DNA from: Chitinophaga pinensis | GTDB taxonomy: Bacteria > Bacteroidota > Bacteroidia > Chitinophagales > LD1 | Assembly (NCBI GenBank): GCA_945867505.1 | Contig: CAMBIM010000005.1 | Location: forward strand, 1 to 39,903 | Direction of reading: 5' to 3' | Length of the DNA stretch: 39,903 bases | Shown: positions 7,078 to 39,903 of the stretch, one piece after another | Layout: each line of letters begins with the position of its first letter | Numbering within the stretch: the first letter of the stretch is position 1 | The notes under the pieces: generated by a model | The model's input: only the letters and a program-made list of their open reading frames with translations | Database searches by the model: none | What the model was told of the DNA's origin: nothing | Program-made: the position numbers and the translations under genes

Positions 7078-10000
7078 ATGAAAAAAATATACTCGATTCT
7101 TTTTTCATTCCTATTACTTCATTCTGCTTTCTCTCAAACTAAATGCGATTCGTTTCTTGTTAATGGAAATTTGTATTTGCAGCGAGATGTAAGTAAAGAG
7201 TTAAACATAGTTGCTTCGCATATAGATAAAGATGTGCAGCCACATCACCACGAGCAATGGGCTTATTATTTAAGCAAGCCGCATCCGTCCGTTTTTACAG
7301 TCAATATGTATTTTAACGATGCTGCCGCAGAGTTTGGTGTGCCGGTTGAAATTTTAAAGACTATTGGGCAGATCGAAAATAACTGGACACAAATGGGGCC
7401 TTCTATTGACGAAGGTTGGGGGATTATGCACTTAGTGCATAATAATTATTGCAACACATTACACGAAGCTGCTTTGTTACTTGGTGTAAGCGATACCGTA
7501 TTGAAAGATGATGCGCATCAAAACATTCGCGGTGCTGCTGCTTTACTTCGAAAATATTTTGATGATGAGAATTTGCAACTAAGCGAACCTCGAACAGAAG
7601 ACTGGTATAACGCAGTAAGGAAATTTTCAGGTTTAATTTCTGCTGAATTGCAAACCATTCAAGCCGATAGATATTTTGGAGTTATAAAAGATGGCATCCA
7701 TAGCACTACACTTTGGAATGAAGAAATTGTTTTGCCGCGAAATAGTGCTATTGATATTTCTTACATCACCGCTAATTATAATTCTGGTACCCAGCCACAA
7801 AGTGTTGACCGCAGTTCAGAATATGGTCCTGCTATTGCAACTATTACTACTTGTAATTACTCTTCAGGCAGAAACCACTCAATTGATACATGGGTGAACC
7901 ATTGGATAGGAACCGGCACAGCTGCCGGTGCAGTTTCGTGGTTCCAAAATAGTTCGGCAAATGCCAGCGCACATTTTATTACAGCAAATAATGGAACAAT
8001 TTATCAAGTGGTTTCGGTAGCCAACACAGCTTGGCATTGTGGGGCTTCGGGATATCCTTATAACAACGGTAGAAGCATTGGGGAAGAACATGAAGCTACC
8101 AACGCTAATCCGGGGCTGTGGAACAGTACGGCTATGTTGCAGGCTTCGGCAAACATGGCTTGTTATTTCTGTGGCTTGTATGGAATAGCTACTAATCAAA
8201 ATCATGTTTCTCCGGGTATTTGTGGTCATCAAAATATGCCCGGTACAAATACCGATTGTCCAGGAACTATTCCCTGGACAACTTGGTTTGGCTATTTCAA
8301 TAACGGCACTTGTAGTGCAGTGGCGGTTACTGCGCCAAACGATTATTGCGGAAATGCTGTTGCCTTGAATGTTTACGGACAAACTTGCACTTCTTCCACC
8401 ACCGGAGATGTAAACGGTGCTACACAATCTACCGCGCCAATTGCCTGCGGTGGTTATACTTCTACAACTGCCAAAGATGTGTGGTTTACTTTTGTTGCTA
8501 CAGCTACTACACACAATATTACCGTAGTGCCTAGCAGTGGTTTTGATGCTGTAATTGATTTGCGAACAGCTTGCCCAGGCACAAGTATAAATTGTGCTGA
8601 CGTTGGTGGTGGAGAAGGCACCACAGAAATTTTGCAAGCTACCGGTTTAACTATTGGCAGTACTTATTATGTGCGCGTTTACGACTACACCGGTGCAAGC
8701 AATCCACCTACTACAACTTCGTTTACTATTTGTATAACTACTCCTTGTTCGCAACCGGTTAAGCCGACAATTACCGGAAGCCATAGTATTTGCGCTGGTC
8801 AGTCAACTGTCCTTTCAATTTCCAATCCTTGTAGTGGTTGTAGTTTTAGCTGGAGTAACGGAAGCAGTGGCAGTCAAATAACAGGAACCACTGCTGGGAA
8901 TTATTTAGTAACTGCTTCTAATGCTTGCGGAACCGTTGTATCAGACCCGTTTGCCTTTGTGGTGAACCAAACTCCGCAGCCGGTTATTGGTAACTTATCG
9001 AACGCTTATTGTTTAGCAAGTGCAAATGCTACTTTGTCTGCCACGCCAAGCGGAGGAACTTTCTTCGGGAACGGAATTTCGGGAAATATTTTTTCTCCTT
9101 CTAATGCAGGAACAGGTACACATACAATTACTTACACAGTTACTCAAAACGGATGTGCCGGTAGCGTATCTCAAATTGTTTCTGTTTCTGCTAATCCTAC
9201 TGTTCATATTTCGGCTAATGGTCCAACATCGGTTTGCAATGGGAATGACGTAGTGCTAATTGCTACCCAAGGAGCAAGTTATTTATGGAGCAATGGTGCT
9301 AACTCACAAACTATTACTGTATCACAAGATGGAGTATTTGATGTAACGGTTACTAACCCCGGTGGATGCAATGCGAATGTCAGTGCTGATAATCCAACTA
9401 CAGTAATCGTGTTTCCTAATCCGGTGGCGTATGCAGGTGCTGACCAAACTTTAATTAACGTGGCTAACAACAGTATAACTATTGGAAGTTCGCCCTCTGC
9501 AAATGGAGGAATTGCGCCATACACTTATTTGTGGTCTCCAGCAGCAGGGTTAAGTTCTTCTGTAAATGCAAACCCGGTGGTTTCTAATATTTCTTCTTCT
9601 ACCAATTACTTTTTGACCGTAACAGATGCTAATGGATGCTCTGCAACCGATGAAGTAAGTATAGCTTTAACTCCAGCATGTAGTTATCATCTTTCTTCAA
9701 ACTACGCGCTTGTTGGTGCTGCTGGTGGTATTGATTCTTTTTATGTTGATGTATCTGATAGCAGTTGCACTGCTTGGGATATTAGCGGTTGTAATGGTGT
9801 AACAATTATTTCTCCATCGCTTCCGCATAGTGGAGATACTATGGTTGTGTTTGCAGTTTCATCTAATACCAACACTTCACAGCGCGTATGTTCTATGAGT
9901 ATAACAGGGGGAGAAAATTTTGTAATAGTGCAAGATGGTGCTACTGTAATTGACCCTTGTAATCCGCCACCGCAAACGCCAACGGTGCAGTTGAACAGTT

Positions 10001-10452
10001 GCGAGTTAGCGGCTTCTTATATTCCTAATCTATCTTATCAATGGTACATGGATATCGCGGTGATTAGTTCAGCTAATTCGCGGTTTTATACGGTTGATCA
10101 AAGCGGTTATTATTATGTAGTCGTTGCCGATTCAAATTTCTGCACAGCACAATCGCAAGATGTGTTTGTAAACTATCCTGCTTGTATGCCTACTGGTGTG
10201 AAAGAACTTGATAACGCTTTCCGTTTCGAAATTTACGAATCAGCTGGTGACCAATGGCACTTGATAGTTGGCAACGAAAGTATAGGTAGCCAGTTAGAAA
10301 TATTTAATGCCGTTGGGCAATTGGTTATGAAGGCTGAAATAAAAAATCAACAGGATGAAATAGATGCCCGTTCATTTACAACCGGCATTTACTTTGCGCG
10401 TCTTTCAGATGCGAGAGCACATTTTTTAGTTAAAAAGATTTCGAAGTTTTGA
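7078..10452 (+). CDS. Secreted bifunctional peptidoglycan hydrolase: lysozyme-like domain + N-acetylmuramoyl-L-alanine amidase (Amidase_2), Ig/PKD modules, T9SS type A sorting domain
   Basis: A 1124-aa modular exoprotein. The signal peptide is residues 1-20 (MKKIYSILFSFLLLHSAFSQ). Residues ~85-200 resemble an SLT/lysozyme-like domain: EILKTIGQIENNW (candidate catalytic Glu100), GWGIMHLV, and NIRGAAALLRKYF. Residues ~240-400 are a zinc amidase (peptidoglycan-recognition fold) with candidate ligands His275 (VNHWIGTG), His384 and Cys394 (GHQNMPGTNTDCPG), plus SAHFIT and GEEHEAT motifs. This order matches known Gram-positive lysozyme-like/amidase proteins. Next come a PPC-like beta domain (~418-555), four Ig/PKD-like Cys-containing modules, a BACON-like segment (~870-960) and one more Ig-like unit. 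The C-terminus (LEIFNAVGQLVMKAEI, then GIYFARL) is a T9SS type A sorting domain, implying export across the outer membrane. Likely roles are lysis of other bacteria or wall scavenging (inference). Monocistronic between two terminators. Confidence 0.9.
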   Translation: MKKIYSILFSFLLLHSAFSQTKCDSFLVNGNLYLQRDVSKELNIVASHIDKDVQPHHHEQWAYYLSKPHPSVFTVNMYFNDAAAEFGVPVEILKTIGQIENNWTQMGPSIDEGWGIMHLVHNNYCNTLHEAALLLGVSDTVLKDDAHQNIRGAAALLRKYFDDENLQLSEPRTEDWYNAVRKFSGLISAELQTIQADRYFGVIKDGIHSTTLWNEEIVLPRNSAIDISYITANYNSGTQPQSVDRSSEYGPAIATITTCNYSSGRNHSIDTWVNHWIGTGTAAGAVSWFQNSSANASAHFITANNGTIYQVVSVANTAWHCGASGYPYNNGRSIGEEHEATNANPGLWNSTAMLQASANMACYFCGLYGIATNQNHVSPGICGHQNMPGTNTDCPGTIPWTTWFGYFNNGTCSAVAVTAPNDYCGNAVALNVYGQTCTSSTTGDVNGATQSTAPIACGGYTSTTAKDVWFTFVATATTHNITVVPSSGFDAVIDLRTACPGTSINCADVGGGEGTTEILQATGLTIGSTYYVRVYDYTGASNPPTTTSFTICITTPCSQPVKPTITGSHSICAGQSTVLSISNPCSGCSFSWSNGSSGSQITGTTAGNYLVTASNACGTVVSDPFAFVVNQTPQPVIGNLSNAYCLASANATLSATPSGGTFFGNGISGNIFSPSNAGTGTHTITYTVTQNGCAGSVSQIVSVSANPTVHISANGPTSVCNGNDVVLIATQGASYLWSNGANSQTITVSQDGVFDVTVTNPGGCNANVSADNPTTVIVFPNPVAYAGADQTLINVANNSITIGSSPSANGGIAPYTYLWSPAAGLSSSVNANPVVSNISSSTNYFLTVTDANGCSATDEVSIALTPACSYHLSSNYALVGAAGGIDSFYVDVSDSSCTAWDISGCNGVTIISPSLPHSGDTMVVFAVSSNTNTSQRVCSMSITGGENFVIVQDGATVIDPCNPPPQTPTVQLNSCELAASYIPNLSYQWYMDIAVISSANSRFYTVDQSGYYYVVVADSNFCTAQSQDVFVNYPACMPTGVKELDNAFRFEIYESAGDQWHLIVGNESIGSQLEIFNAVGQLVMKAEIKNQQDEIDARSFTTGIYFARLSDARAHFLVKKISKF

Positions 10453-10458
10453 AAAGTA

Positions 10459-10494
10459 AAAGGGACGGGCTTGCGCAAGCAAGTCCGTCCCTTT
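10459..10494. terminator. Bidirectional terminator between convergent hydrolase and E2 genes
   Basis: A 14-bp stem (one G-T pair) with an 8-nt loop: AAAGGGACGGGCTT at 10459-10472 pairs with AAGTCCGTCCCTTT at 10481-10494. T-rich sequence follows on the minus strand (TTTTACTTTT) and a weaker one on the plus strand. It serves the genes ending at 10452 (+) and 10528 (-). Confidence 0.88.
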
Positions 10495-11815: not shown

Positions 11816-12169
11816 TTACTTCTTCATTTCATCTATCAAGGCGCGCTGCATTTTTTCTTTATCGAAGAAGTGATTCATAAAATCATCTTTCGAATTCTTA
11901 TCAAAAATGTTTAGCTCGTTTTGCGTTGACTTTTTTCGGTAGTGGTCAATTATCTTTCGTTTTAAAATAGAAATGAGCCATGTTTTTTCAGACGCATTGC
12001 CCAAAAAAGAATCTTTGCCTTTTAATGCACTAAAGAAAGTTTCCTGCACCAAATCTTCTGCCACCTCGCGCTTGGTGATGCGCGAAATAGTATAACTGAA
12101 CAGCACATCGCTGTAGCGTTCAATCCATTTTTCGGGCTCTAACTTTGGTTCGGTATTTTCTAGGCTCAT
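11816..12169 (-). CDS. Truncated sigma-70 family (ECF-like) RNA polymerase sigma factor, region 2 only
   Basis: A 117-aa protein holding a complete sigma region 2: RYSDVLFSYTISRITKRE, DLVQETFFSALKG (core-binding helix), TWLISILKRKIIDHYRKK (-10 recognition). The usual ECF factor continues 60-80 residues into region 4, which binds the -35 element. Here the frame ends at RALIDEMKK and TAA, and the 46 nt before the E2 start cannot encode region 4 in any frame. The gene thus lost its 3' end or encodes a region-2-only protein. It starts 15 nt after the beta-glucosidase gene and probably shares its transcript. No anti-sigma gene is adjacent. Confidence 0.82.
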   Translation of the reverse strand: MSLENTEPKLEPEKWIERYSDVLFSYTISRITKREVAEDLVQETFFSALKGKDSFLGNASEKTWLISILKRKIIDHYRKKSTQNELNIFDKNSKDDFMNHFFDKEKMQRALIDEMKK

Positions 12170-29182: not shown

Positions 29183-32100
29183 ATGAGAAAACGTTTATTC
29201 TCCCAAACCACCACATTAAGAGTTTTATTTTTCACAACTATTTTGTTTTGCTTAAGCAAAATAGCCATAGCGCAGTGTGGACTTAGCGCATTTAACGAAG
29301 GCGGTACACTCACCCCTACAGCCGCATGGACAAACGTGAGTGTGGGTAGCGGTACCTATACTAATTTCAACGCACAGCCCGGAAGGATTTACTCCTTTAA
29401 CTACGTTACAAACTCTGCGGTTTTACCGTACGTTTGGGATTTAACTTTGTCTACTTCATCGGGTGTTTTGAATTATAACAACTCTTTAACTCCAATTCGC
29501 GACCCTTGGACAGGTGGAGCATGCCCTCCTATTATCAGACCACAATCATCAGAATGGTGGTCAGGTACATTTAATGGATTAGTTACCGCAAATACAAATG
29601 CTTATAACACGAGTAATAGCACTTGTAATGCGTGGGTTCCAGGTCAAGGCTCTGCAATTTTATCATATAAAGAATGTATACCAACACCCGACCTTGGTTC
29701 TGGAAATAACTCATGGAATGTAGAAGCCTTTGCCACTGCTGATATTAACATACCGATACCCGATGCACGATACGGATTGTATACAGACAACAATTTGAAT
29801 TTTGTAACTACAGCTTTTTGGGCAGCTAACAGCAACCCCTCTACTGCTGCCAGTTGGTTAGGATGCGAAGTTCCTAACGATAATTTTGCTATTCGCGCAA
29901 GAAGAACAGGTTTTCCTTGCGGTTTGTACACTATTTCTGACAATAATCATGACGACAATCTACGCATTTACGTAAATGGAGCATTGATATATGATGTATC
30001 TGGCGGTGCTCCGGCTGGCGTGGTTGGAAACCCAGCAGGGTATGTTTTAAGCTCTACAGATAATGTTGAAGTTCGTTTAGTAGATGTTTGTGCACCTGGA
30101 GTTGCAGATGTTGGAATAAATTTACAACCCCTTCCAATTTTAAGTGGAGGAACCATTGGTGGAGTTATTGATAATTCATCAGTATGTGAAGGTATCGCAA
30201 TAGGTAATTTCACTAATGCTGCCGCTGCAAGCGGTGGTACTGTAGGTTTTCCAAATGGAGGCAACTTTACTTATGATTGGGAACTTTCAACTGATGGAGG
30301 AGGTTCATTTAGTTCTGTAGGTGTTTCTACTGACACATGGAATAGTTCTACCATTGTACCTGTAGGTTCAACCTATGTAATAAGGAGAAAAGTAACTGAC
30401 CATTGTGGTTCGGTTGCTTACTCAAATACCATAACCGTTATAGGCAGACCGACACCTAATGCAAGTATGTCTCCAATCAGTCAGACTATTTGCCCGGGAA
30501 CTTCTGCATCTCTTACTATTGATTTGAATCCAGGAAATGGACCTTTTAATATTGGTTACACAGATGGGGTTAGTAATTTTTCTGGATCCGGTTTAAACAC
30601 TGGCGATGCTATTACAGTAAGTCCAACCCTTAGCCCAACTATTTACTCATTTACCACGCTTACTGATGTTTATGGTTGTACAAGAACTTCTGGTTTTACA
30701 GGAGGTGCGTCTGTAAGTGTTGTGCCGAATATTACTTATAATTCGGTTACATCTACCGATGTTTTATGCAACGGAGGAAATACCGGAACAATTACCGTAA
30801 ATGCACAAGGTGGAAACGGGGGACTTGAATATTCAGTAGATGGAGGAGTAAACTATCAGCCGTCAAATATTTTTACTGGGTTAATAGCAGGAACATATAA
30901 TGTATATGTGAAAGATAATTTTGGTTGCATTCAACCATACGGAACACCAGTGATAGTTGCAGAACCAACTGATGTTACCCAAACCCTCATTGGCGTTGAT
31001 GCCAGTTGTGCTAACGTATTCGATGGAACTATTACTATTACCCCAAATGGTGGAATTGGGCCATATAACTACTCATTAAATGGTGGGCCTCTTCAACCGG
31101 GTAATGTTTTTAATGGCATTGCAGCGGGAAACTATTTAGTTAGTGTTTACGACTCCAATAATTGTTTAGATACTGCGAGTATTGCCATTGGCAATACTTA
31201 TATTATATCTGTTACTATAGATACGCAAGCCAATGTTTCTTGTATTGGTGCCGCAGATGGTTCATTTACAGTTCAAGTAAATGGTGGTATTCCGGCTTAT
31301 TCGTACTCTATTAACGGGGTTACCTATCAGTCATCGGGAACTTTTACTGGTTTAAGTGCAGGAACTTACATTGTAATTGGTCGAGATTCTAAAGGTTGCA
31401 CAGAAACAGTTAACGTAACTATTGCACCGCCAGCTCCAATTATTGTAGCTGTAGATTCTTTTAATAATGTTTTGTGTAATGGCACTGCAACTGGAAATGT
31501 ATTTATTTCTGTTAGCGGAGGAACCCCGGGTTATACGTTTAATTGGAACACAGGACCAACAACAGAAGATTTAATTGGCATACCAGCAGGAGTATACACT
31601 GTTACAGTTGCCGATTCAAGAGGATGTTTATCTACTGCATCTGCTACTATTACAGAGCCGCTTCCTTTATTCTTAAATATAGCTTCTTACAACGATTTAT
31701 TGTGTTCTGGAGATTCTTCAGGTGCTATTGATGTTACCGCTAATGGTGGCGTTCCGGCATATACGTATTTGTGGAGCAATGGTGAAGTTTCAGAAGATAT
31801 TGACGAACTTAAACTTGGTACATACACTGTTACGGTTACAGATAATAACGGATGCACAACAACTATTTCACAAGTTATTAATGAGCCTACACCTTTGATT
31901 ATCACAGCTACAAGCGTAGATGTAACTTGTTATGGTGGTTCTAACGGTTCTATTAACGTCAGTGTAACAGGTGGCACACCCTCATATTCTTTCCTTTGGT
32001 CAACTTTTGAAACTTCAGAAGATATTGCAAACTTGCAAGCAGGTACTTATAACGTAATAGTTTCTGACAATAACGGGTGCCAGCAAAACCAATCAGTAAC

Positions 32101-34267
32101 TATAAATCAACCAACAGAGTTAGTTCTTTCTACAGTAGTAACTCAAATTTCTTGTTTTAATACCTGTGATGGATCAATTGATTTAACCGTAACTGGCGGC
32201 ACTCCTAACTATACTTACAATTGGAGCAACGGTGAAACAACAGAAGACATAGCCTCTTTATGTGGAGCCATATACGTTGTTACAATTACTGATGATGATG
32301 GATGTACAGCCTCTACTTCAGCAACTATTGTAGCTACGGCACCAATCAATACCAGCTTTATTATTAAAAACCCTTTATGCTTTGGTGAGGCCAATGGTTC
32401 AATTGATTTAATCCCCTCTGGAGGAACATTCCCTTATACATTCAACTGGAGTAATGGATTTACCACGGAAGATTTAGCAAACATTGGAGACGGTGTTTAC
32501 ATCATAACAATAACCGATTCTAGGAATTGCGTTAAGGTAGATTCTACAGAATTGGTAGAGCCAAGTGCTATTTATACTTCTGGATTTATTAAGAATGTAT
32601 CTTGTAATGGAAACAACGATGGATTTATAGACATTACTGCATACGGAGGCACTTTGCCTTATGGCTTTAACTGGTCATGGGGGCCCTCTACCGAAGATTT
32701 AGGTAACTTACCGGGAGGCAATTATACTGTAACTGTAACTGACGTTAACGGTTGTCAGGCAGCTTCACTTTATGTAGTTACGGAACCTACGGTTCTTAAT
32801 GTGCAAGCTGTAGGAACTGATATTTCATGTTTTGGAGGATGTAATGGTTCTGTTGCTGCTATTCCAACGGGCGGAACAACTCCATACGAGTATCTATGGA
32901 ATAACTTTATTCCAGATTCTACTCAATCAGGCTTATGTGCAGGGAAGTATATTGTGTTACTGACCGATTCGAATGGTTGCCACACTTACGACAGTATTAA
33001 TATTGTTGAACCATCTGAAATTAGTATTACAGGTGTTGTTACTAATGTTTTCTGTAACGGATTTAATACAGGTTCAATTATTGTAACCGTTGGTGGTGGA
33101 ACTCCTGGCTATACTTTCTCATGGTCTAACGGAGAAACTACTCAAAGCATTACTGGTCTTGTAGCTGGAACTTATAGCGTTACTGTTACAGATAACAGAG
33201 GATGTATTAAAACAGCCACTTTTGTTGTTGCAGAATCAAATGGTATGTATACCAACGTATCTATTAATGCTCCAAAATGTTTCGGAGGAAACGATGCGTT
33301 TGTTTCTGTAGAAATTACTGGAGGCACACCTCCTTACGTTTATACATGGAATACAACTCCATCGCAACCTGGTGCTACAGCTACTAATTTGCAAGCTGGT
33401 GTTTATGAATTGACAATTACAGACGTGAATAGCTGTTCTGCAACTGTTTCTGCAACTGTAGCAAGTCCAAACCCGATAACTATTTCTACAAATCCTACTA
33501 ACTCGAAATGTTACAATACTTCTACTGGAGTAGTAGTAGCAACAGCAACAGGTGGTCAGCCTCCATACATTTATGAATTAAATGGAATAATTCAAAGTTC
33601 TAATACGTTCGTTAATTTGGGAGTGGGAACATACATTATAGCTGTGCGCGATGCTAATGGCTGTGAAGCAACTAAGAACTTTGATATACTATCTCCTGTG
33701 CCGGTAACAGTTGATTTAGTGGCACCACAAATAGTTATATTGCAAGGAATGACAGTTCCGTTGATAGCAACAGCTAATTCTCCTAACTCTCCAATTGTTA
33801 ATTATATATGGGAGCCAGGTGCAGACTCAATTTTCAATTTTAGTAATTGCGCAGATGCAACTAATTGCTTTAATCCAAACGTAACACCGCAATATACTAC
33901 TGTATTTACGGTTACAGTTATGAACGCAGATTCATGCTATGCTTCTGATACGGCAACTATTATAGTTGAAGCTAAACCATCAGCGTTTATACCGTCAGCA
34001 TTTACACCAAACGGTGACAATTTGAACGACCGATTTGAATTTGATATTCTTGGTGCAACAAACATTAATATCCAAATTTTTGACCGTTGGGGACATAAAA
34101 TATATGATAATCCTACTCAACTAAATGGTACAAATAGCGGTAGTGGATGGGATGGTAAAAATGAAGGTAAGGCATTGCCTTTCGATACGTATGTTTGGCA
34201 AATGAAGGTAACCTACTTTGATGGTCTTGTAAAAGACCAAAGCGGTACGGTTACAATTATGAAATAG
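29183..34267 (+). CDS. SprB-repeat giant surface adhesin with T9SS type B (gliding motility-associated) C-terminal domain
   Basis: A 1694-aa cell-surface protein. Signal peptide: residues 1-30 (CLSKIAIA, cut before QC). Residues 31-320 form a Cys-containing head domain (AWTNVSVGSGTYTNFNAQPG, WNVEAFATADI, IRARRTGFPCGLY). Two Ig-like units follow (about 321-520). Residues 523-1508 hold 13 SprB repeats. Each repeat starts with C-x-G-x3-G-x-I/V, has a GG-xP-Y-x-Y/F-x-W core and ends with an NGC-like Cys. A PKD-like spacer precedes the C-terminal domain at 1600-1694 (PSAFTPNGDNLNDRF, IFDRWGHKIY, GWDGKNEGK), which directs export by T9SS and surface attachment. SprB-type proteins serve as gliding adhesins in Flavobacterium; the role here is inferred. 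Closed by a terminator; its paralogue follows 83 nt later. Confidence 0.93.
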   Translation: MRKRLFSQTTTLRVLFFTTILFCLSKIAIAQCGLSAFNEGGTLTPTAAWTNVSVGSGTYTNFNAQPGRIYSFNYVTNSAVLPYVWDLTLSTSSGVLNYNNSLTPIRDPWTGGACPPIIRPQSSEWWSGTFNGLVTANTNAYNTSNSTCNAWVPGQGSAILSYKECIPTPDLGSGNNSWNVEAFATADINIPIPDARYGLYTDNNLNFVTTAFWAANSNPSTAASWLGCEVPNDNFAIRARRTGFPCGLYTISDNNHDDNLRIYVNGALIYDVSGGAPAGVVGNPAGYVLSSTDNVEVRLVDVCAPGVADVGINLQPLPILSGGTIGGVIDNSSVCEGIAIGNFTNAAAASGGTVGFPNGGNFTYDWELSTDGGGSFSSVGVSTDTWNSSTIVPVGSTYVIRRKVTDHCGSVAYSNTITVIGRPTPNASMSPISQTICPGTSASLTIDLNPGNGPFNIGYTDGVSNFSGSGLNTGDAITVSPTLSPTIYSFTTLTDVYGCTRTSGFTGGASVSVVPNITYNSVTSTDVLCNGGNTGTITVNAQGGNGGLEYSVDGGVNYQPSNIFTGLIAGTYNVYVKDNFGCIQPYGTPVIVAEPTDVTQTLIGVDASCANVFDGTITITPNGGIGPYNYSLNGGPLQPGNVFNGIAAGNYLVSVYDSNNCLDTASIAIGNTYIISVTIDTQANVSCIGAADGSFTVQVNGGIPAYSYSINGVTYQSSGTFTGLSAGTYIVIGRDSKGCTETVNVTIAPPAPIIVAVDSFNNVLCNGTATGNVFISVSGGTPGYTFNWNTGPTTEDLIGIPAGVYTVTVADSRGCLSTASATITEPLPLFLNIASYNDLLCSGDSSGAIDVTANGGVPAYTYLWSNGEVSEDIDELKLGTYTVTVTDNNGCTTTISQVINEPTPLIITATSVDVTCYGGSNGSINVSVTGGTPSYSFLWSTFETSEDIANLQAGTYNVIVSDNNGCQQNQSVTINQPTELVLSTVVTQISCFNTCDGSIDLTVTGGTPNYTYNWSNGETTEDIASLCGAIYVVTITDDDGCTASTSATIVATAPINTSFIIKNPLCFGEANGSIDLIPSGGTFPYTFNWSNGFTTEDLANIGDGVYIITITDSRNCVKVDSTELVEPSAIYTSGFIKNVSCNGNNDGFIDITAYGGTLPYGFNWSWGPSTEDLGNLPGGNYTVTVTDVNGCQAASLYVVTEPTVLNVQAVGTDISCFGGCNGSVAAIPTGGTTPYEYLWNNFIPDSTQSGLCAGKYIVLLTDSNGCHTYDSINIVEPSEISITGVVTNVFCNGFNTGSIIVTVGGGTPGYTFSWSNGETTQSITGLVAGTYSVTVTDNRGCIKTATFVVAESNGMYTNVSINAPKCFGGNDAFVSVEITGGTPPYVYTWNTTPSQPGATATNLQAGVYELTITDVNSCSATVSATVASPNPITISTNPTNSKCYNTSTGVVVATATGGQPPYIYELNGIIQSSNTFVNLGVGTYIIAVRDANGCEATKNFDILSPVPVTVDLVAPQIVILQGMTVPLIATANSPNSPIVNYIWEPGADSIFNFSNCADATNCFNPNVTPQYTTVFTVTVMNADSCYASDTATIIVEAKPSAFIPSAFTPNGDNLNDRFEFDILGATNINIQIFDRWGHKIYDNPTQLNGTNSGSGWDGKNEGKALPFDTYVWQMKVTYFDGLVKDQSGTVTIMK
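30749..33706 (+). repeat. Array of 13 SprB-type repeats (protein-level, ~75 aa period)
   Basis: The first Cys codon of successive repeats is at 30767, 31007, 31241, 31475, 31703, 31928, 32153, 32378, 32603, 32828, 33053, 33278 and 33509. The intervals are 240, 234, 234, 228, then 225 seven times, then 231 nt. Repeats share the C-x-G, GG-xP-Y, TED(I/L)-x-x-L-x-G-Y-x-V-T-V-x-D-x-x-GC pattern; nucleotide identity is modest, so these are old units. Confidence 0.93.
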
Positions 34268-34350: not shown

Positions 34351-37300
34351 ATGAATAAGCACATGCTCTCTGGCACAAATGCTTCTTTTAAGAGATTTAC
34401 ACTTACCCTTGCTGTTTTTTTCTCCTTTATTTTTTCTTTTGAACTTTATGCCCAATGCGGGCTAAGTCCGTTTGTGCAAGGGGCTACCTTGACTCCAACA
34501 ACAGCTTGGACGAATGTAAGCGTTGGTAGCGGCACGTATATTAATTTTAACGTTACTAATGGTAATTTCTATTCGTTTAGGTATACCACAGCGAACTCTA
34601 ACCTAGGAGGGGCGAATTTGTGGGATATGACACTTTCCAATAGCTCAACGGCTCTCGCTTATAATAATTCTTCTACCCCCATTAATGACTCTTGGACTAA
34701 TGGAGCTGGTTGTCCTCAATCTACCAGCCCAACTTCGGCAGAGTGGTATTCTACATTCACTGGTCTACTACGCGTAAATACAAAAACAGATGTTAGTGGA
34801 ACATGCACAAACTGGATATCGGGACAAAATTCAGCTGTATTGCAATATAAAACTTGTGCACCTGCTGCTGATCCGGGTTCAGGAAGTAATGTCTGGAATG
34901 TAGAAGCTTTTGCAACAACAGATATATCTATTCCCAATACAAATGCACGCTACGGATATTATGTAGATAATAGCTTAAATTTCGTTACTACATCAAGTTG
35001 GGCGGTTGGATCAAATCCTTCAACAGCTTCTGGGTGGACAGGCTGTGGATCTGGAGGTGGAGGGCTCTTGATGCCAAACGACAACTTCACAATTCGTGCT
35101 CGCAGAACTGGTTTCCCATGTGGTCTATATAGAATTTTCGTAAATAATTCAGATGATAACATTCGTGTTTTAGTGAACGGAAATCAAATCTTTAATGCTA
35201 CTTGTTGTATCAGTACATCTACCCAAATTGGGAACGTAGCAGGATATGTTCTATCTTCCACTGATATAGTAGAAATTAGATTAATGGACGAATGTGGTGG
35301 TGGCCAAGCCAATGTAAGTTTTGTAGCACAAACACCACCTACTCTTACAGAGGCAACTATTGGATCTAACCAAAGTTTTTGTGGAACGGCAACACCAGCA
35401 GCATTGTCAGGTGTTGCAGCAACAGGTGGTTACGGAACCGCTTACATTGGTGGGTCTTATACTTACGACTGGAAATATTTAGATGGATGTGTGCCACCTG
35501 TAGTAGCAGTTGGTTTAAACAGCACATCAATAGCTCCTCCATCATTAACAGCAACACGTTGCTATGTAAGGACAGTGGAAGATAAATGCGGAAATGTTGA
35601 AAATTCTAATTTAGTAACAATTACCATAAACACGCCTTCAGTAGCACCGAGTTCTATTACCGGTACAAGTCTGATATGTAACGGACAAAGCACCACACTT
35701 AACGTTAGTGGCGGCTCTCTAGGCACTGGTGCAACTTGGCAATGGTATACGGGAAGTTGTGGAGGTACACCAGCAGGAACAGGCGCTTCTCTTCCTGTTA
35801 GCCCAATAACTACAACCACATATTATGTAAGAGCGGAAGGAACTTGTAACAATACAGCGTGCGCTCAAGTAACAGTTACAGTTAATAACCCTTCTGTAGC
35901 ACCTACAGGGGTTACAGGAATTACTACTATATGCAATGGAGGTACTACCACGCTTAACGTTGCTGGCGGTTCGTTAGGTACTGGTGCAGATTGGGCATGG
36001 TATAGCGGAAGTTGTGGAGGTAGTTTTGTTGCGAATGGACCATCAATTACTATTTCACCTTCCATCACCACTACTTACTTTGTAAGAGCTGTGGGTTCTG
36101 CCCCATGTACTTACCCTAGTGCCTGCGCTTCTGCAACTGTAACTGTCAACACACTTTCAGTTGCTCCCACTTCAATTTCAGGAACAACTACAATTTGTCA
36201 AGGAAGTTCAACAAATCTTACTGTGGTTGGCGGTTCCCTTGGCACTGGTGCAACTTGGCAATGGTATACGGGAAGTTGCGGAGGTACCCCAGCAGGAACA
36301 GGTGCTTCTCTTCCTGTTAATCCCCTAACAACAACTACTTACTATGTGCGCGCGGAAGGAACTTGTAACAATACAACGTGCGCTCAAGTAACGGTGATAG
36401 TTAATGACCCTTCTGTAGCACCTACAGGAGTTACAGGAATTACTACTATATGCAATGGAGGAGCTACCATACTGACCGTTGCGGGAGGTTCTTTAGGTAA
36501 TGGTGCTAACTGGCAATGGTATAGTGGAAGTTGCGGTGGAACATTTGTAGGTAGCGGAACTTCTGTTACTATATCACCTACAACAAGTACAACCTATTAT
36601 GTAAGAGCTGAGGGGCCATCCCCTTGTAATACTACTACAGCTTGTGCATCTCAATTGGTAACTGTTAATACACTTTCTACCGACCCTGTTTCTATTTCAG
36701 GAACAATCACTATTTGTGGGGGATTGTCAACTAATCTTACTGTGGTAGGCGGCTCCTTAGGTACAGGTGGTGTATGGACTTGGTATGCCGGAGGTTGCGG
36801 CACAGGCTCTTCCGTAGGTACGGGTGCTACTATAACAGTTACCCCAACCGCATCTACCAGTTACTATGTTCGTGCGGAAGGAACTTGTAATACAACCAAT
36901 TGTACATTTACTCCAGTTACAGTTAACGATTCATCAATAGTTGCTTCTTCTATTACAGGTTCGCCAGCAATATGCATAGGTGGTTCAACTAACCTTGCGG
37001 CAGTTGGTGGTTATTTGGGAGTAGGAGCTAACTGGCGTTGGTATAGCGCAAGTTGCGGAGGTACGTTGGTTGGAACAGGCACTCCAATATCAGTGTCACC
37101 TACAACAACTACTACCTATTATTTACGAGCAGAAGGTTTGTGTAATACCACAGTATGTATTCCATTTACAGTAACAGTAAATCCTCTACCCAACGGAAGT
37201 ATTGCCGGTTCTGCAACAGTTTGTTACGGAGTAGATACCACTGTTACCTTTAACTTTGCTGTAGGAACTGCCCCATTTGATGTGGTTTACACGGACGGAA

Positions 37301-39903
37301 CAAATACCTTTACAAAAACTAGTGTAAGCAATGGAGATACTATTCAGGTATTTCCACTTACTACTACTACTTATACTATTCAACAAATTACCGATAACAA
37401 TGGTTGCGTGAGAAGCACTGGATTCCTAGGAGCTGCAACAGTTACTATTGCGCCACTTCCGGTGGTTAATAGTGTAGTTGAAAACGATGTACTTTGTAAC
37501 GGTGGAAATACTGGTTCAATTAGTGTTACCGCTACAAACGGTACACCTACTTATACTTACTCTAACGACAATGGAGTTACTTACCAAGGCAGTAACGTTT
37601 TTAATGGACTTATAGCTGCAACCTATCAAATATTTATTCAAGATGTATTGGCTTGTAGATCTGCTTTGGCATATCCTGTTGTAGTAGGCGAGCCAACTGC
37701 TCTTACTCATATTGCAACTCCGCAAAATGCAAGTTGCGATAATGTATTTGATGGAAGTATAACGGTGAGTGCCTCTGGCGGTATTTTGCCATATAACTAC
37801 TCATTGAATGGCGGCCCAACGCAACCAGGTAATTTTTTCAATGGCTTATCTGCAGGAACCTATACCGTTTTAGTAACCGATGACAATGCTTGTACCAATT
37901 CCTCTACCGTAATTATTGATACAGCTTATGCTGTTTACGGAAGTTTAGTTTCGCAAACAGCTGTATCATGCTTTGGTGGAGTAGATGGAACTGTAACCGT
38001 TCAATTAACTGGTGGCGTTCCTCCTTATGCATACTCAATCAATGGTGTTCAATTCGTAGCTTCTCCAACCTTTACTGGTTTAGCTTCGGGTAATTATGTA
38101 GTTACGCTTCGCGATTCTAAAGGTTGTACTGATTTTGTTAATGTAACCATTGCACAGCCAAATCAATTGCAGGCGCAAATTGATTCAGTGATTAACATAG
38201 GATGTAGCGGAGCTAGCTCTGGTGCTATCTATATTACTGTAAGCGGAGGCAATCCAACTTATAACTTCTTGTGGAGTAACAGTGCTGTATCGGAAGACGT
38301 AACCGGATTGACTGCCGGAACTTACAATGTGGCTATTACTGATTCTAAAGGTTGCACTTCTTCTGTAGGAGCTACTATTTCTCAGCCACTTCCATTATTT
38401 GTAAACGTAGCTTCTTATAACGATTTAAGATGTTTCAACGATTCAACAGGTTCTATTGATGTTACTGTAAATGGAGGTGTGCCACCTTACAATTTTGCAT
38501 GGAGTAGCGGAGATATAACCGAAGATTTGACAAACTTAGATGCTGGTACATATTCGCTTACTGTTACTGACGCTAACGGATGCCAACAATTTATTTCAAG
38601 AACACTTACAGAGCCGGCTATGCTTGCATCGGGCACGGTGGTTACCAACTTAACTTGTAATGGTTCAAATGACGGAGATATTAACCTAACTGTAACTGGA
38701 GGAACTTTACCTTTTTCTTACTTATGGAGTAATGGACTTGTAACTGAAGACTTAACCGCTATTGCAGCAGGATCATATACTGTTGTTATAACTGATGCTA
38801 ATGGATGTGGTACATCGAATACTTCAGTGGTTACTCAACCGGATGCTTTGGTTCTTTCTACTACTATAACTAATGCAGGATGTAACGGAGCAGCAACTGG
38901 AGCTATTGACTTAGAAGTAACAGGCGGCACAGGCGCATATACTTACGAATGGACGGGTGGCGGAGCGACTCAAGACACCAGTAACTTGTTGGCAGGAACT
39001 TATGTAGTAACAGTTACCGATGCTAATAATTGTACGGCTACTGCATCTGCTACCATTTCACAACCAGCACAAGCATTAAATTCAACTATATCCGCTACAG
39101 ATGTTACTTGCTACGGTGCGAGTGATGGAACAGTAAACTTAACGGTAACAGGGGGAACACAACCTTATTCTTACTCTTGGAGCAATAACGCAAATACCGA
39201 AGACCTTACCAGTTTAGGACCTGATACTTATTCAGTAACTATTACGGATGCCAATTTATGCACCACGGTTACAAGTATTGTGGTGAACGAGCCGGATACT
39301 CTTGTAGCAACTATTGCAGGAACTGACGTTTCTTGTTTTGGAGGAAACGATGGTGCGGCTAACCTTACCGTAACAGGAGGAAATGGAGGATACGTTTACT
39401 TATGGAGTAACTTCGCAGGGACAGAAGATTTATCATCGCTTACTGCGGCCAACTATGTAGTTATTGTAAACGATGCTAAAGGATGCCAGGCAATTACAAG
39501 TGTTGTTATTGCGCAACCTGCACAATTAGTTATTTCAGGAGTTGTTACCAACGTATTGTGTAATGGTGCTGCTACTGGAGAAATAAACTTAACTATAAGC
39601 GGTGGTATCGGTTCATACACTTATGCTTGGACAGGCGGTGGTGCTACAGAAGATACCAGCGGTTTGGTTGTAGGAACTTATTCAGTTACTGTAACAGACG
39701 GAAATAACTGTACTGCTACAGCAACTTATACAATCACCCAACCTACTGCACTTTTATTGAATGCTACGACCACGGATGTAGGTTGTGCAGGCGGAGCGAA
39801 TGGTTCAATAGACATTACAGTTCAGGGCGGAGTATTCCCATACAGTTTTGCCTGGAGCAACGGTTCGGTTACAGAAGATGTGAACGGATTGAGCGGAGGC
39901 AGC
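34351..39903 (+). CDS. Second SprB-repeat giant adhesin, paralogue of the upstream gene (3' end outside window)
   Basis: The frame is open from ATG 34351 to the last base (1851 codons, no stop), so the C-terminus is outside. Signal peptide: residues 1-34 (ELYA, cut before QC). Residues 35-330 are the same head domain as in the upstream adhesin (AWTNVSVGSGTYINFN, WNVEAFATTDI, IRARRTGFPCGLY). One Ig-like unit follows, then six extra Ig-like units (about 430-943; TWQWYTGSCGG, TTTYYVRAEGTC), one Ig-like unit equivalent to the second of the upstream gene, and at least 11 SprB repeats from residue ~1043. A type B T9SS domain is expected off the edge but not seen. Codon 5 (ATG 34363) is an alternative start. 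The pair probably arose by tandem duplication. Confidence 0.92.
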   Translation, partial: MNKHMLSGTNASFKRFTLTLAVFFSFIFSFELYAQCGLSPFVQGATLTPTTAWTNVSVGSGTYINFNVTNGNFYSFRYTTANSNLGGANLWDMTLSNSSTALAYNNSSTPINDSWTNGAGCPQSTSPTSAEWYSTFTGLLRVNTKTDVSGTCTNWISGQNSAVLQYKTCAPAADPGSGSNVWNVEAFATTDISIPNTNARYGYYVDNSLNFVTTSSWAVGSNPSTASGWTGCGSGGGGLLMPNDNFTIRARRTGFPCGLYRIFVNNSDDNIRVLVNGNQIFNATCCISTSTQIGNVAGYVLSSTDIVEIRLMDECGGGQANVSFVAQTPPTLTEATIGSNQSFCGTATPAALSGVAATGGYGTAYIGGSYTYDWKYLDGCVPPVVAVGLNSTSIAPPSLTATRCYVRTVEDKCGNVENSNLVTITINTPSVAPSSITGTSLICNGQSTTLNVSGGSLGTGATWQWYTGSCGGTPAGTGASLPVSPITTTTYYVRAEGTCNNTACAQVTVTVNNPSVAPTGVTGITTICNGGTTTLNVAGGSLGTGADWAWYSGSCGGSFVANGPSITISPSITTTYFVRAVGSAPCTYPSACASATVTVNTLSVAPTSISGTTTICQGSSTNLTVVGGSLGTGATWQWYTGSCGGTPAGTGASLPVNPLTTTTYYVRAEGTCNNTTCAQVTVIVNDPSVAPTGVTGITTICNGGATILTVAGGSLGNGANWQWYSGSCGGTFVGSGTSVTISPTTSTTYYVRAEGPSPCNTTTACASQLVTVNTLSTDPVSISGTITICGGLSTNLTVVGGSLGTGGVWTWYAGGCGTGSSVGTGATITVTPTASTSYYVRAEGTCNTTNCTFTPVTVNDSSIVASSITGSPAICIGGSTNLAAVGGYLGVGANWRWYSASCGGTLVGTGTPISVSPTTTTTYYLRAEGLCNTTVCIPFTVTVNPLPNGSIAGSATVCYGVDTTVTFNFAVGTAPFDVVYTDGTNTFTKTSVSNGDTIQVFPLTTTTYTIQQITDNNGCVRSTGFLGAATVTIAPLPVVNSVVENDVLCNGGNTGSISVTATNGTPTYTYSNDNGVTYQGSNVFNGLIAATYQIFIQDVLACRSALAYPVVVGEPTALTHIATPQNASCDNVFDGSITVSASGGILPYNYSLNGGPTQPGNFFNGLSAGTYTVLVTDDNACTNSSTVIIDTAYAVYGSLVSQTAVSCFGGVDGTVTVQLTGGVPPYAYSINGVQFVASPTFTGLASGNYVVTLRDSKGCTDFVNVTIAQPNQLQAQIDSVINIGCSGASSGAIYITVSGGNPTYNFLWSNSAVSEDVTGLTAGTYNVAITDSKGCTSSVGATISQPLPLFVNVASYNDLRCFNDSTGSIDVTVNGGVPPYNFAWSSGDITEDLTNLDAGTYSLTVTDANGCQQFISRTLTEPAMLASGTVVTNLTCNGSNDGDINLTVTGGTLPFSYLWSNGLVTEDLTAIAAGSYTVVITDANGCGTSNTSVVTQPDALVLSTTITNAGCNGAATGAIDLEVTGGTGAYTYEWTGGGATQDTSNLLAGTYVVTVTDANNCTATASATISQPAQALNSTISATDVTCYGASDGTVNLTVTGGTQPYSYSWSNNANTEDLTSLGPDTYSVTITDANLCTTVTSIVVNEPDTLVATIAGTDVSCFGGNDGAANLTVTGGNGGYVYLWSNFAGTEDLSSLTAANYVVIVNDAKGCQAITSVVIAQPAQLVISGVVTNVLCNGAATGEINLTISGGIGSYTYAWTGGGATEDTSGLVVGTYSVTVTDGNNCTATATYTITQPTALLLNATTTDVGCAGGANGSIDITVQGGVFPYSFAWSNGSVTEDVNGLSGGS
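35641..37185 (+). repeat. Six Ig-like domains arranged as three ~519-nt two-domain units
   Basis: The key Cys codon of the six domains is at 35677, 35932, 36196, 36451, 36715 and 36973 (intervals 255, 264, 255, 264, 258). Domains 1, 3 and 5 are 519 nt apart; domains 2 and 4 are 519 nt apart and 4 and 6 are 522. Domains 1 and 3 are nearly identical in DNA around GGCACTGGTGCAACTTGGCA (35722 and 36241). Domains 2 and 4 share CCTTCTGTAGCACCTACAGG-like sequence (35890 and 36409). The third unit is more diverged. Confidence 0.92.
37480..39903 (+). repeat. SprB-type repeat array of the second adhesin (at least 11 repeats, cut by window edge)
   Basis: The first Cys codons are at 37495, 37735, 37969, 38203, 38431, 38656, 38881, 39109, 39334, 39559 and 39784. 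The intervals are 240, 234, 234, 228, 225, 225, 228, 225, 225 and 225 nt. The first six intervals equal those of the upstream adhesin. Repeats 7 and 10 (678 nt apart) are unusually alike (CNGAATG, then WTGGGAT-x-DTS), hinting at a three-repeat internal duplication. Confidence 0.92.

What the first reader, a model, noticed from the sequence alone, without database searches (positions are those of the whole stretch)
7078..10452. T9SS-exported dual peptidoglycan hydrolase
A lysozyme/SLT-like domain with a candidate catalytic Glu and a zinc amidase with all expected ligands are fused to Bacteroidota adhesive modules (PPC-like, Ig/PKD-like, BACON-like) and a T9SS tail. The catalytic half has the same layout as Gram-positive lysozyme-like/amidase proteins, suggesting domain acquisition. 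Cleaving both glycan and peptide linkages outside the cell fits bacteriolysis or feeding on wall debris.
Basis: partly seen in the sequence, partly recalled or inferred. Interest (0 to 1): 0.6.

Follow-up and report, generated by a model that had tools for sequence, protein, structure and literature searches.

The report
Exported bacterial cell-wall cutting enzyme
A gene in a Bacteroidota genome encodes an exported protein that probably cuts other bacteria's cell walls in two places, and it belongs to a wide family in which one of the two cutting domains has often lost its key residue and may now only hold the wall.

Summary
The ORF at 7078-10452 (+) encodes 1124 aa: a lysozyme-like domain, an Amidase_2 zinc amidase, surface modules and a type A T9SS tail. 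The lysozyme-like domain is a divergent family-1 lytic transglycosylase (SLT) domain; Glu100 falls on the catalytic Glu of MltC.

The two-domain unit is not special to this protein. It occurs colinearly in Actinomycetota, Bacillota, Myxococcota and Bacteroidota, and SLT1 with an amidase is a published pairing. The trees give no support for a recent Gram-positive origin.

Across 147 relatives that position is Glu in 64, with at least 15 changes on the tree. The amidase residues His275, Glu337 and His384 are kept in every readable row. The window protein lies in an 11-row branch that keeps Glu throughout.

Most likely it is an exported amidase whose SLT domain binds glycan and, in this branch, still cuts it (about 0.6). 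A purely glycan-binding SLT domain is the main rival. No activity was measured.

The parts
7078..10452 (+). whole gene, 1124 aa, stand-alone
   Evidence: flanking genes kept only in the nearest relative examined, G017
7078..7137 (+). N-terminal Sec-type signal peptide (residues 1-20)
   Evidence: read by eye from the translation; no predictor was run
7303..7695 (+). SLT-like (family-1 lytic transglycosylase fold) domain, residues 76-206
   Evidence: family profile against PDB lytic transglycosylases, best E 1.8e-7; Pfam SLT in 42 of 54 members; model matches MltF Z 13.8
7375..7377 (+). Glu100, candidate catalytic Glu
   Evidence: aligned with the MltC Glu; Glu in all 11 rows of the window clade but in only 64 of 147 relatives
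7402..7404 (+). Ser109, at Glu + 9 as Ser73 is to Glu64 in MltE
   Evidence: alignment to MltC; MltE residues from PMC5841429 passages
7876..8265 (+). Amidase_2 zinc amidase domain, residues 267-396
   Evidence: PF01510 70 bits; PlyL Z 18.1, AmpD Z 17.6
7900..7902 (+). His275, zinc ligand
   Evidence: 147 of 147 rows
8086..8088 (+). Glu337, likely general base (AmpD Glu116 equivalent; that number is recalled)
   Evidence: 147 of 147 rows; partly selected by the search pattern
8227..8229 (+). His384, zinc ligand
   Evidence: 146 of 147 rows, the other being cut off by its contig end
8257..8259 (+). Cys394, probable third ligand in place of Asp
   Evidence: Cys in all 15 rows of the window plus Pedobacter-like branch of the 85-row tree, and in one actinomycete; Asp in the other 69
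8338..8730 (+). galactose-binding-like T9SS-associated domain, residues 421-551
   Evidence: PF23759 41.2 bits against a cut-off of 27
8755..9666 (+). Ig/PKD-like repeats, residues 560-863
   Evidence: Ig_7 and K319L-like PKD, both below Pfam cut-offs; similar segments across the genome
10264..10440 (+). T9SS type A sorting tail, residues 1063-1121
   Evidence: TIGR04183 26.3 bits against a cut-off of 23
10459..10494 (+). intrinsic-terminator-like hairpin, 16 pairs
   Evidence: a consensus match only, 9 found in the region against 3.8 expected from shuffles

Best explanation
The protein is made with a Sec signal (inferred by eye), carried across the outer membrane by the T9SS and left on the surface or released. 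Its zinc amidase cuts the bond between MurNAc and L-Ala of foreign or loose peptidoglycan; its own sacculus lies behind the outer membrane. The SLT-like domain in front of it binds the glycan strand and, in this branch, probably also cleaves it by the lytic transglycosylase reaction with Glu100. The modules behind hold the enzyme to a surface or polymer. Shown here: domains, tail, T9SS genes in the same genome, Glu alignment, residue conservation. Inferred: secretion, both activities, target, benefit.
For: Amidase_2 over cut-off. Glu100 on the MltC Glu. Confident model with MltF-like and PlyL/AmpD-like halves. Glu kept in 11 of 11 rows of the window clade and one of 36 invariant columns among 135 SLT columns across the 10 clade rows then in hand. 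Ser109 sits at Glu + 9, as Ser73 does in MltE. T9SS tail in the window and over cut-off in 20 of 20 relatives' tails tested and 6 of 6 Bacteroidota tails tested; tails of L059, L062, L064, L065 and L067 of the same branch were not given to those calls. SprA, GldM and PorV families over cut-off in the window's genome. SLT part under purifying selection (window against L010: dN 0.174, dS 1.00).
Against: Glu is absent in 83 of 147 relatives, so the family does not need it. His118, Phe183 and Asp111 replace Gln, Tyr and Ser of MltC. The SLT half has higher dN than the amidase half in 15 of 15 pairs, which are not independent. The tendency of other SLT positions to be lost with the Glu is not significant on independent pairs. 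SprA's frame holds one in-frame TGA in this draft. No secretion or enzyme data.
Confidence: 0.6

Rival explanations
1. Single-activity enzyme: the amidase is the only catalyst, and the SLT-like domain is a glycan-binding module here too, with Glu100 kept by chance or for binding.
For: At least 15 changes of the Glu state on the tree while the amidase residues are invariant; faster SLT evolution; departures from family-1 motifs II and III.
Against: Glu is kept in every row of the window clade and in other E-bearing lineages; S109 and G113 accompany it in 52 and 53 of 57 E-bearing rows, though not significantly on independent pairs.
Confidence: 0.3
2. The catalytic half was acquired recently from a Gram-positive donor.
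For: Whole-unit homologues in Streptomyces and Nonomuraea, and in Bacillota; Golvesin_C follows the amidase in both a Nonomuraea protein and a Bacteroidota relative, L024.
Against: Window clade not nested in any Gram-positive group; the 49 Bacteroidota-side rows already on one side of a branch, support 53; identity to Gram-positive relatives only about 26-36 per cent.
Confidence: 0.08
3. A periplasmic or surface enzyme for the cell's own wall turnover, not aimed outward.
For: Most SLT and amidase enzymes known serve own-wall remodelling (general knowledge).
Against: T9SS tail over cut-off in the window and all 26 Bacteroidota relatives' tails tested; sporadic presence, 13 of 60 relatives; a relative in Myxococcota carries MYXO-CTERM over its cut-off (L096).
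Confidence: 0.05

Closest known systems
SLT1 plus Amidase_2 two-catalyst cell-wall enzymes (pairing listed in PMC6403190; passages seen), here as the Streptomyces/Nonomuraea/Bacillota relatives
   Same: Same order of domains, colinear over the catalytic half
   Different: T9SS tail and Bacteroidota surface modules in place of the C-termini seen there, such as Golvesin_C; Cys rather than Asp as probable third ligand
Family-1 lytic transglycosylases MltC, MltE, MltF, Slt (PF01464)
   Same: Fold, Glu of motif I, Ser at Glu + 9
   Different: Motif II G-x-M-H instead of G-L-M-Q, Phe183 instead of Tyr, Asp111 instead of Ser; below the Pfam cut-off alone
AmpD/PlyL/XlyA-type Amidase_2 enzymes
   Same: Fold (Z 17-18), two His ligands, Glu
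   Different: Third ligand apparently Cys; fused to SLT; exported by T9SS
Widespread Bacteroidota T9SS amidases with a divergent SLT-like N-domain (described here)
   Same: Same layout: N-terminal signal (by eye), SLT-like domain, Amidase_2, further modules, T9SS tail
   Different: Catalytic Glu replaced in all 50 rows of that clade; Asp at the third-ligand position

Membership tests
Family-1 lytic transglycosylase (SLT) | lysozyme-like SLT fold | tested here: met
   profile to PDB lytic transglycosylases, best E 1.8e-7; MltF Z 13.8
Family-1 lytic transglycosylase (SLT) | window protein alone over the Pfam PF01464 cut-off | tested here: not met
   12.4 bits against 21.3
Family-1 lytic transglycosylase (SLT) | catalytic Glu in motif I | tested here: met
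   Glu100 aligned with the MltC Glu
Family-1 lytic transglycosylase (SLT) | motif II Gln and motif III Tyr-Asn (motif definitions recalled; MltC letters) | tested here: not met
   His118; Phe183-Ser184
Family-1 lytic transglycosylase (SLT) | 1,6-anhydroMurNAc product | not testable with these tools
   needs enzyme assay
Amidase_2 zinc amidase | PF01510 over cut-off | tested here: met
   70 bits against 26
Amidase_2 zinc amidase | two His ligands and catalytic Glu | tested here: met
   His275, His384, Glu337
Amidase_2 zinc amidase | third ligand Asp or Cys | tested here: inconclusive
   Cys394 invariant in its clade; HMMER instead places Asp393 on the AmpDh2 Asp
T9SS type A cargo | TIGR04183 tail over cut-off at the C-terminus | tested here: met
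   26.3 bits against 23
T9SS type A cargo | T9SS core genes in the genome | tested here: met
   SprA 1623, GldM 368, PorV 382 bits
T9SS type A cargo | Sec signal peptide | not tested
   only read by eye
Gram-positive SLT-amidase proteins, as donor group | window nested within a Gram-positive clade | tested here: not met
   the root is not known

The most novel reading that the evidence does not exclude
Bacteroidota export a widespread family of amidases in which a lytic transglycosylase fold has been turned, many times over, from a catalyst into a glycan-gripping module that positions the amidase on peptidoglycan. The window protein is from a branch that kept the catalytic residue, so one family holds living and dead versions side by side. 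These may be the secreted factors by which Flavobacterium-like bacteria use Gram-positive walls.
Probability: 0.45. Interest if true: 0.58.

Novelty: new variant of a known kind. Interest (0 to 1): 0.42.

Why it matters
If right, it puts a domain with no Pfam or NCBIfam match into the lytic transglycosylase fold and explains it as a recurrently inactivated partner of an exported amidase. It also gives a natural series (Glu, Gln, Asn and others) to ask what a transglycosylase domain is for when it cannot cut, and names candidate enzymes for the reported ability of Cytophaga-Flavobacterium bacteria to degrade Bacillus cereus walls and of F. johnsoniae to grow better on its peptidoglycan (PMC11205867, passage seen; the original 2006 paper was not held).

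Tried and rejected
Gram-positive donor: tested by trees of 85, 117 and 147 rows and a one-clade test; no support. 'Amidase-only' Bacteroidota hits: my first reading; rejected when the upstream sequence was read and profile comparison gave 98.9 per cent probability, E 3e-17, against at most 0.5 per cent for ten column shuffles and 0.6 per cent for the reversed alignment. Profile A4 of that divergent domain found no transglycosylase in the PDB directly, so its membership rests on the link through A3. Statistical co-loss of other active-site positions with the Glu: apparent in counts, not significant on independent pairs (output partly cut). BACON and Ig layout by structure: the model of residues 406-1124 failed. 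Phage origin: 4 phage records matched, amidase part only; 13 IMG/VR loci, amidase part only. Operon partners: flanking genes were found beside the gene only in G017 among the loci examined. Literature searches with no listed paper describing this family: (listings only, open-licence papers only); one search was for MltE residues.

The earlier 90-row count still held duplicates and partial rows; it is not used.

Full report
What is there. The ORF at 7078-10452 on the + strand is intact and 1124 aa long. It has a Sec-like start (by eye), an SLT-like domain (about 76-206), an Amidase_2 domain (267-396), a galactose-binding-like T9SS-associated domain (421-551), Ig/PKD-like repeats and a T9SS type A tail. 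It is followed by a terminator-like hairpin at 10459-10494. Its neighbours (phosphatidylserine decarboxylase upstream, dihydrolipoamide acetyltransferase facing it) were found next to it only in G017, the nearest relative, among the loci examined, so it behaves as a stand-alone gene.

Is the lysozyme-like domain real? Alone it is under the Pfam SLT cut-off. A profile of 54 relatives finds MltC-type enzymes first (best E 1.8e-7), then MltF, EtgA and MltE, and 42 of 54 members hit Pfam SLT at E <= 0.01. The alignment puts the family's Glu, window Glu100, on the MltC Glu; the entry 4cfo carries Gln there. A confident model (pLDDT 90.6) matches MltF over residues 10-163 of the model and PlyL, XlyA and AmpD over 185-345. 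MltE calculations used E64, S73, S75 and Y192 (PMC5841429, passages). Window Glu100 and Ser109 have the same spacing as E64 and S73; the position of S75 holds Asp111. MltC's motif II Gln is His118 and its motif III Tyr is Phe183. So the fold and the Glu are there, but the site is not canonical.

Is the amidase real? Yes: 70 bits, with PlyL and AmpD folds. His275, Glu337 and His384 are in 147, 147 and 146 of 147 rows, the last being cut off by a contig end. Glu337 lies within one of the two search patterns, so its invariance is partly selected; His275 and His384 do not. The third ligand is Cys394 rather than Asp, by inference: C precedes P-G in 16 of 85 rows, that is all 15 of the window plus Pedobacter-like branch and one actinomycete; the other 69 have Asp. 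One HMMER alignment instead sets Asp393 on the AmpDh2 Asp, but position 393 varies in the clade.

Where else the unit occurs. A tblastn search covers at least 80 per cent of the catalytic half in one place in 3 of 23 matching plasmid-collection records. One genome-collection scan kept 80 loci out of 563 confirmed, from Actinomycetota, Bacillota, Myxococcota, Bacteroidota and single others. A published review already lists SLT1 with type-2 or type-3 amidases (PMC6403190, passages).

The unexpected part. 94 of 295 genomes of the window's class, and 13 of 60 relatives, matched the catalytic half, most only over the amidase. Reading upstream in 33 such loci showed a further domain, P-x-G-x-L-E-A-V-A-F-x-x-T-R-F ... 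Y-G-V-M-G-L, with N, Q, A, M, K or T where the Glu should be, in all 32 that reach that far. Its profile (28 rows) has no credible Pfam or NCBIfam family and no transglycosylase in the PDB directly. Against the SLT profile of the window family it aligns over 138 columns at 98.9 per cent, E 3e-17; ten column shuffles gave at most 0.5 per cent and the reversed alignment 0.6 per cent. Tails of 20 relatives fetched whole (17 of this divergent type, 2 of the window clade, 1 Pedobacter-like) all pass the T9SS type A cut-off.

Glu on the tree. With 30 more loci (35 fetched, 4 duplicates and 1 unalignable dropped) the 147-row tree gives Glu in 64, Gln in 36, Asn in 26, others in 21, and at least 15 changes of the Glu/not-Glu state. 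The Glu and third-ligand columns were left out of the tree. This tree is a 'quick' one without bootstraps, and 40 of 144 inner branches are unresolved; changes cannot tell gain from loss. The 50-row Bacteroidota clade has no Glu; the window clade has Glu in 11 of 11; its sister, 7 Pedobacter-like rows, has Gln in all 7, the letter that 4cfo bears at this place. A further loose set of Bacteroidota rows from across the phylum (L016, L215, L206-L213, L120) has Glu in 7 of 11. Actinomycetota split 34 to 11 and Bacillota 6 to 6 in the 117-row set.

What this means for the window protein. The Glu is kept where the window lies, and the SLT half is under purifying selection, though its dN is higher than that of the amidase half in all 15 ortholog pairs. 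I take dual action as more likely than not, and glycan binding as the role common to the family (inference). That other SLT positions fade with the Glu is visible in counts but not significant on independent pairs.

Origin. In the 85-row careful tree the 15 rows of the window plus Pedobacter-like branch form a fully supported group (100/100) apart from the Gram-positive rows. In the 117-row tree the 49 rows (48 Bacteroidota and one Wallbacteria bin) lie on one side of a branch, with support 53. No tree is rooted. Golvesin_C after the amidase in both L053 (Nonomuraea) and L024 (Bacteroidota) hints at shared or repeated architecture. Transfer is neither shown nor excluded.

Export. SprA, GldM and PorV families are in the genome over their cut-offs, the SprA frame with one in-frame TGA in this 74 per cent complete draft. 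In Myxococcota, 1 of the 4 tails tested passes the MYXO-CTERM cut-off (L096) and 3 do not, which would again put the enzyme at the cell surface.

Why interest is moderate. The given finding is a well-read new member of a known pairing. The repeated change of the catalytic Glu beside an invariant amidase, and a divergent SLT-like domain without a family model in exported Bacteroidota amidases, lift it to a new variant worth an assay.

Noticed in passing
window 11816-12169 (-): A 117-aa ECF sigma factor that ends after region 2; in G017 (L218) the orthologue is about 200 aa with the C-terminal part present, so the window copy looks truncated or misassembled.
   Followed up: partly
window 29183-34267 and 34351-39903 (+): Two giant ORFs; the first has a T9SS type B tail, and both share Ig/PKD-like segments with the amidase protein.
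   Followed up: no
G000:C196 (L149): The SprA frame (1623 bits) holds one in-frame TGA; sequencing error or real disruption not decided.
   Followed up: no
L076 (Phytoactinopolyspora limicola): An actinomycete member with Cys in place of the Asp ligand, apart from the Bacteroidota branch.
   Followed up: no
L097 (titled Bifidobacterium breve) and L112 (titled Pseudomonas): Their proteins group with Myxococcota and Bacillota rows respectively, so the contigs may be contaminated or mislabelled.
   Followed up: no
L062, L089 (Candidatus Wallbacteria bin): A window-clade member (L062) with SH3 domains and no visible T9SS tail, in a non-Bacteroidota bin.
   Followed up: no
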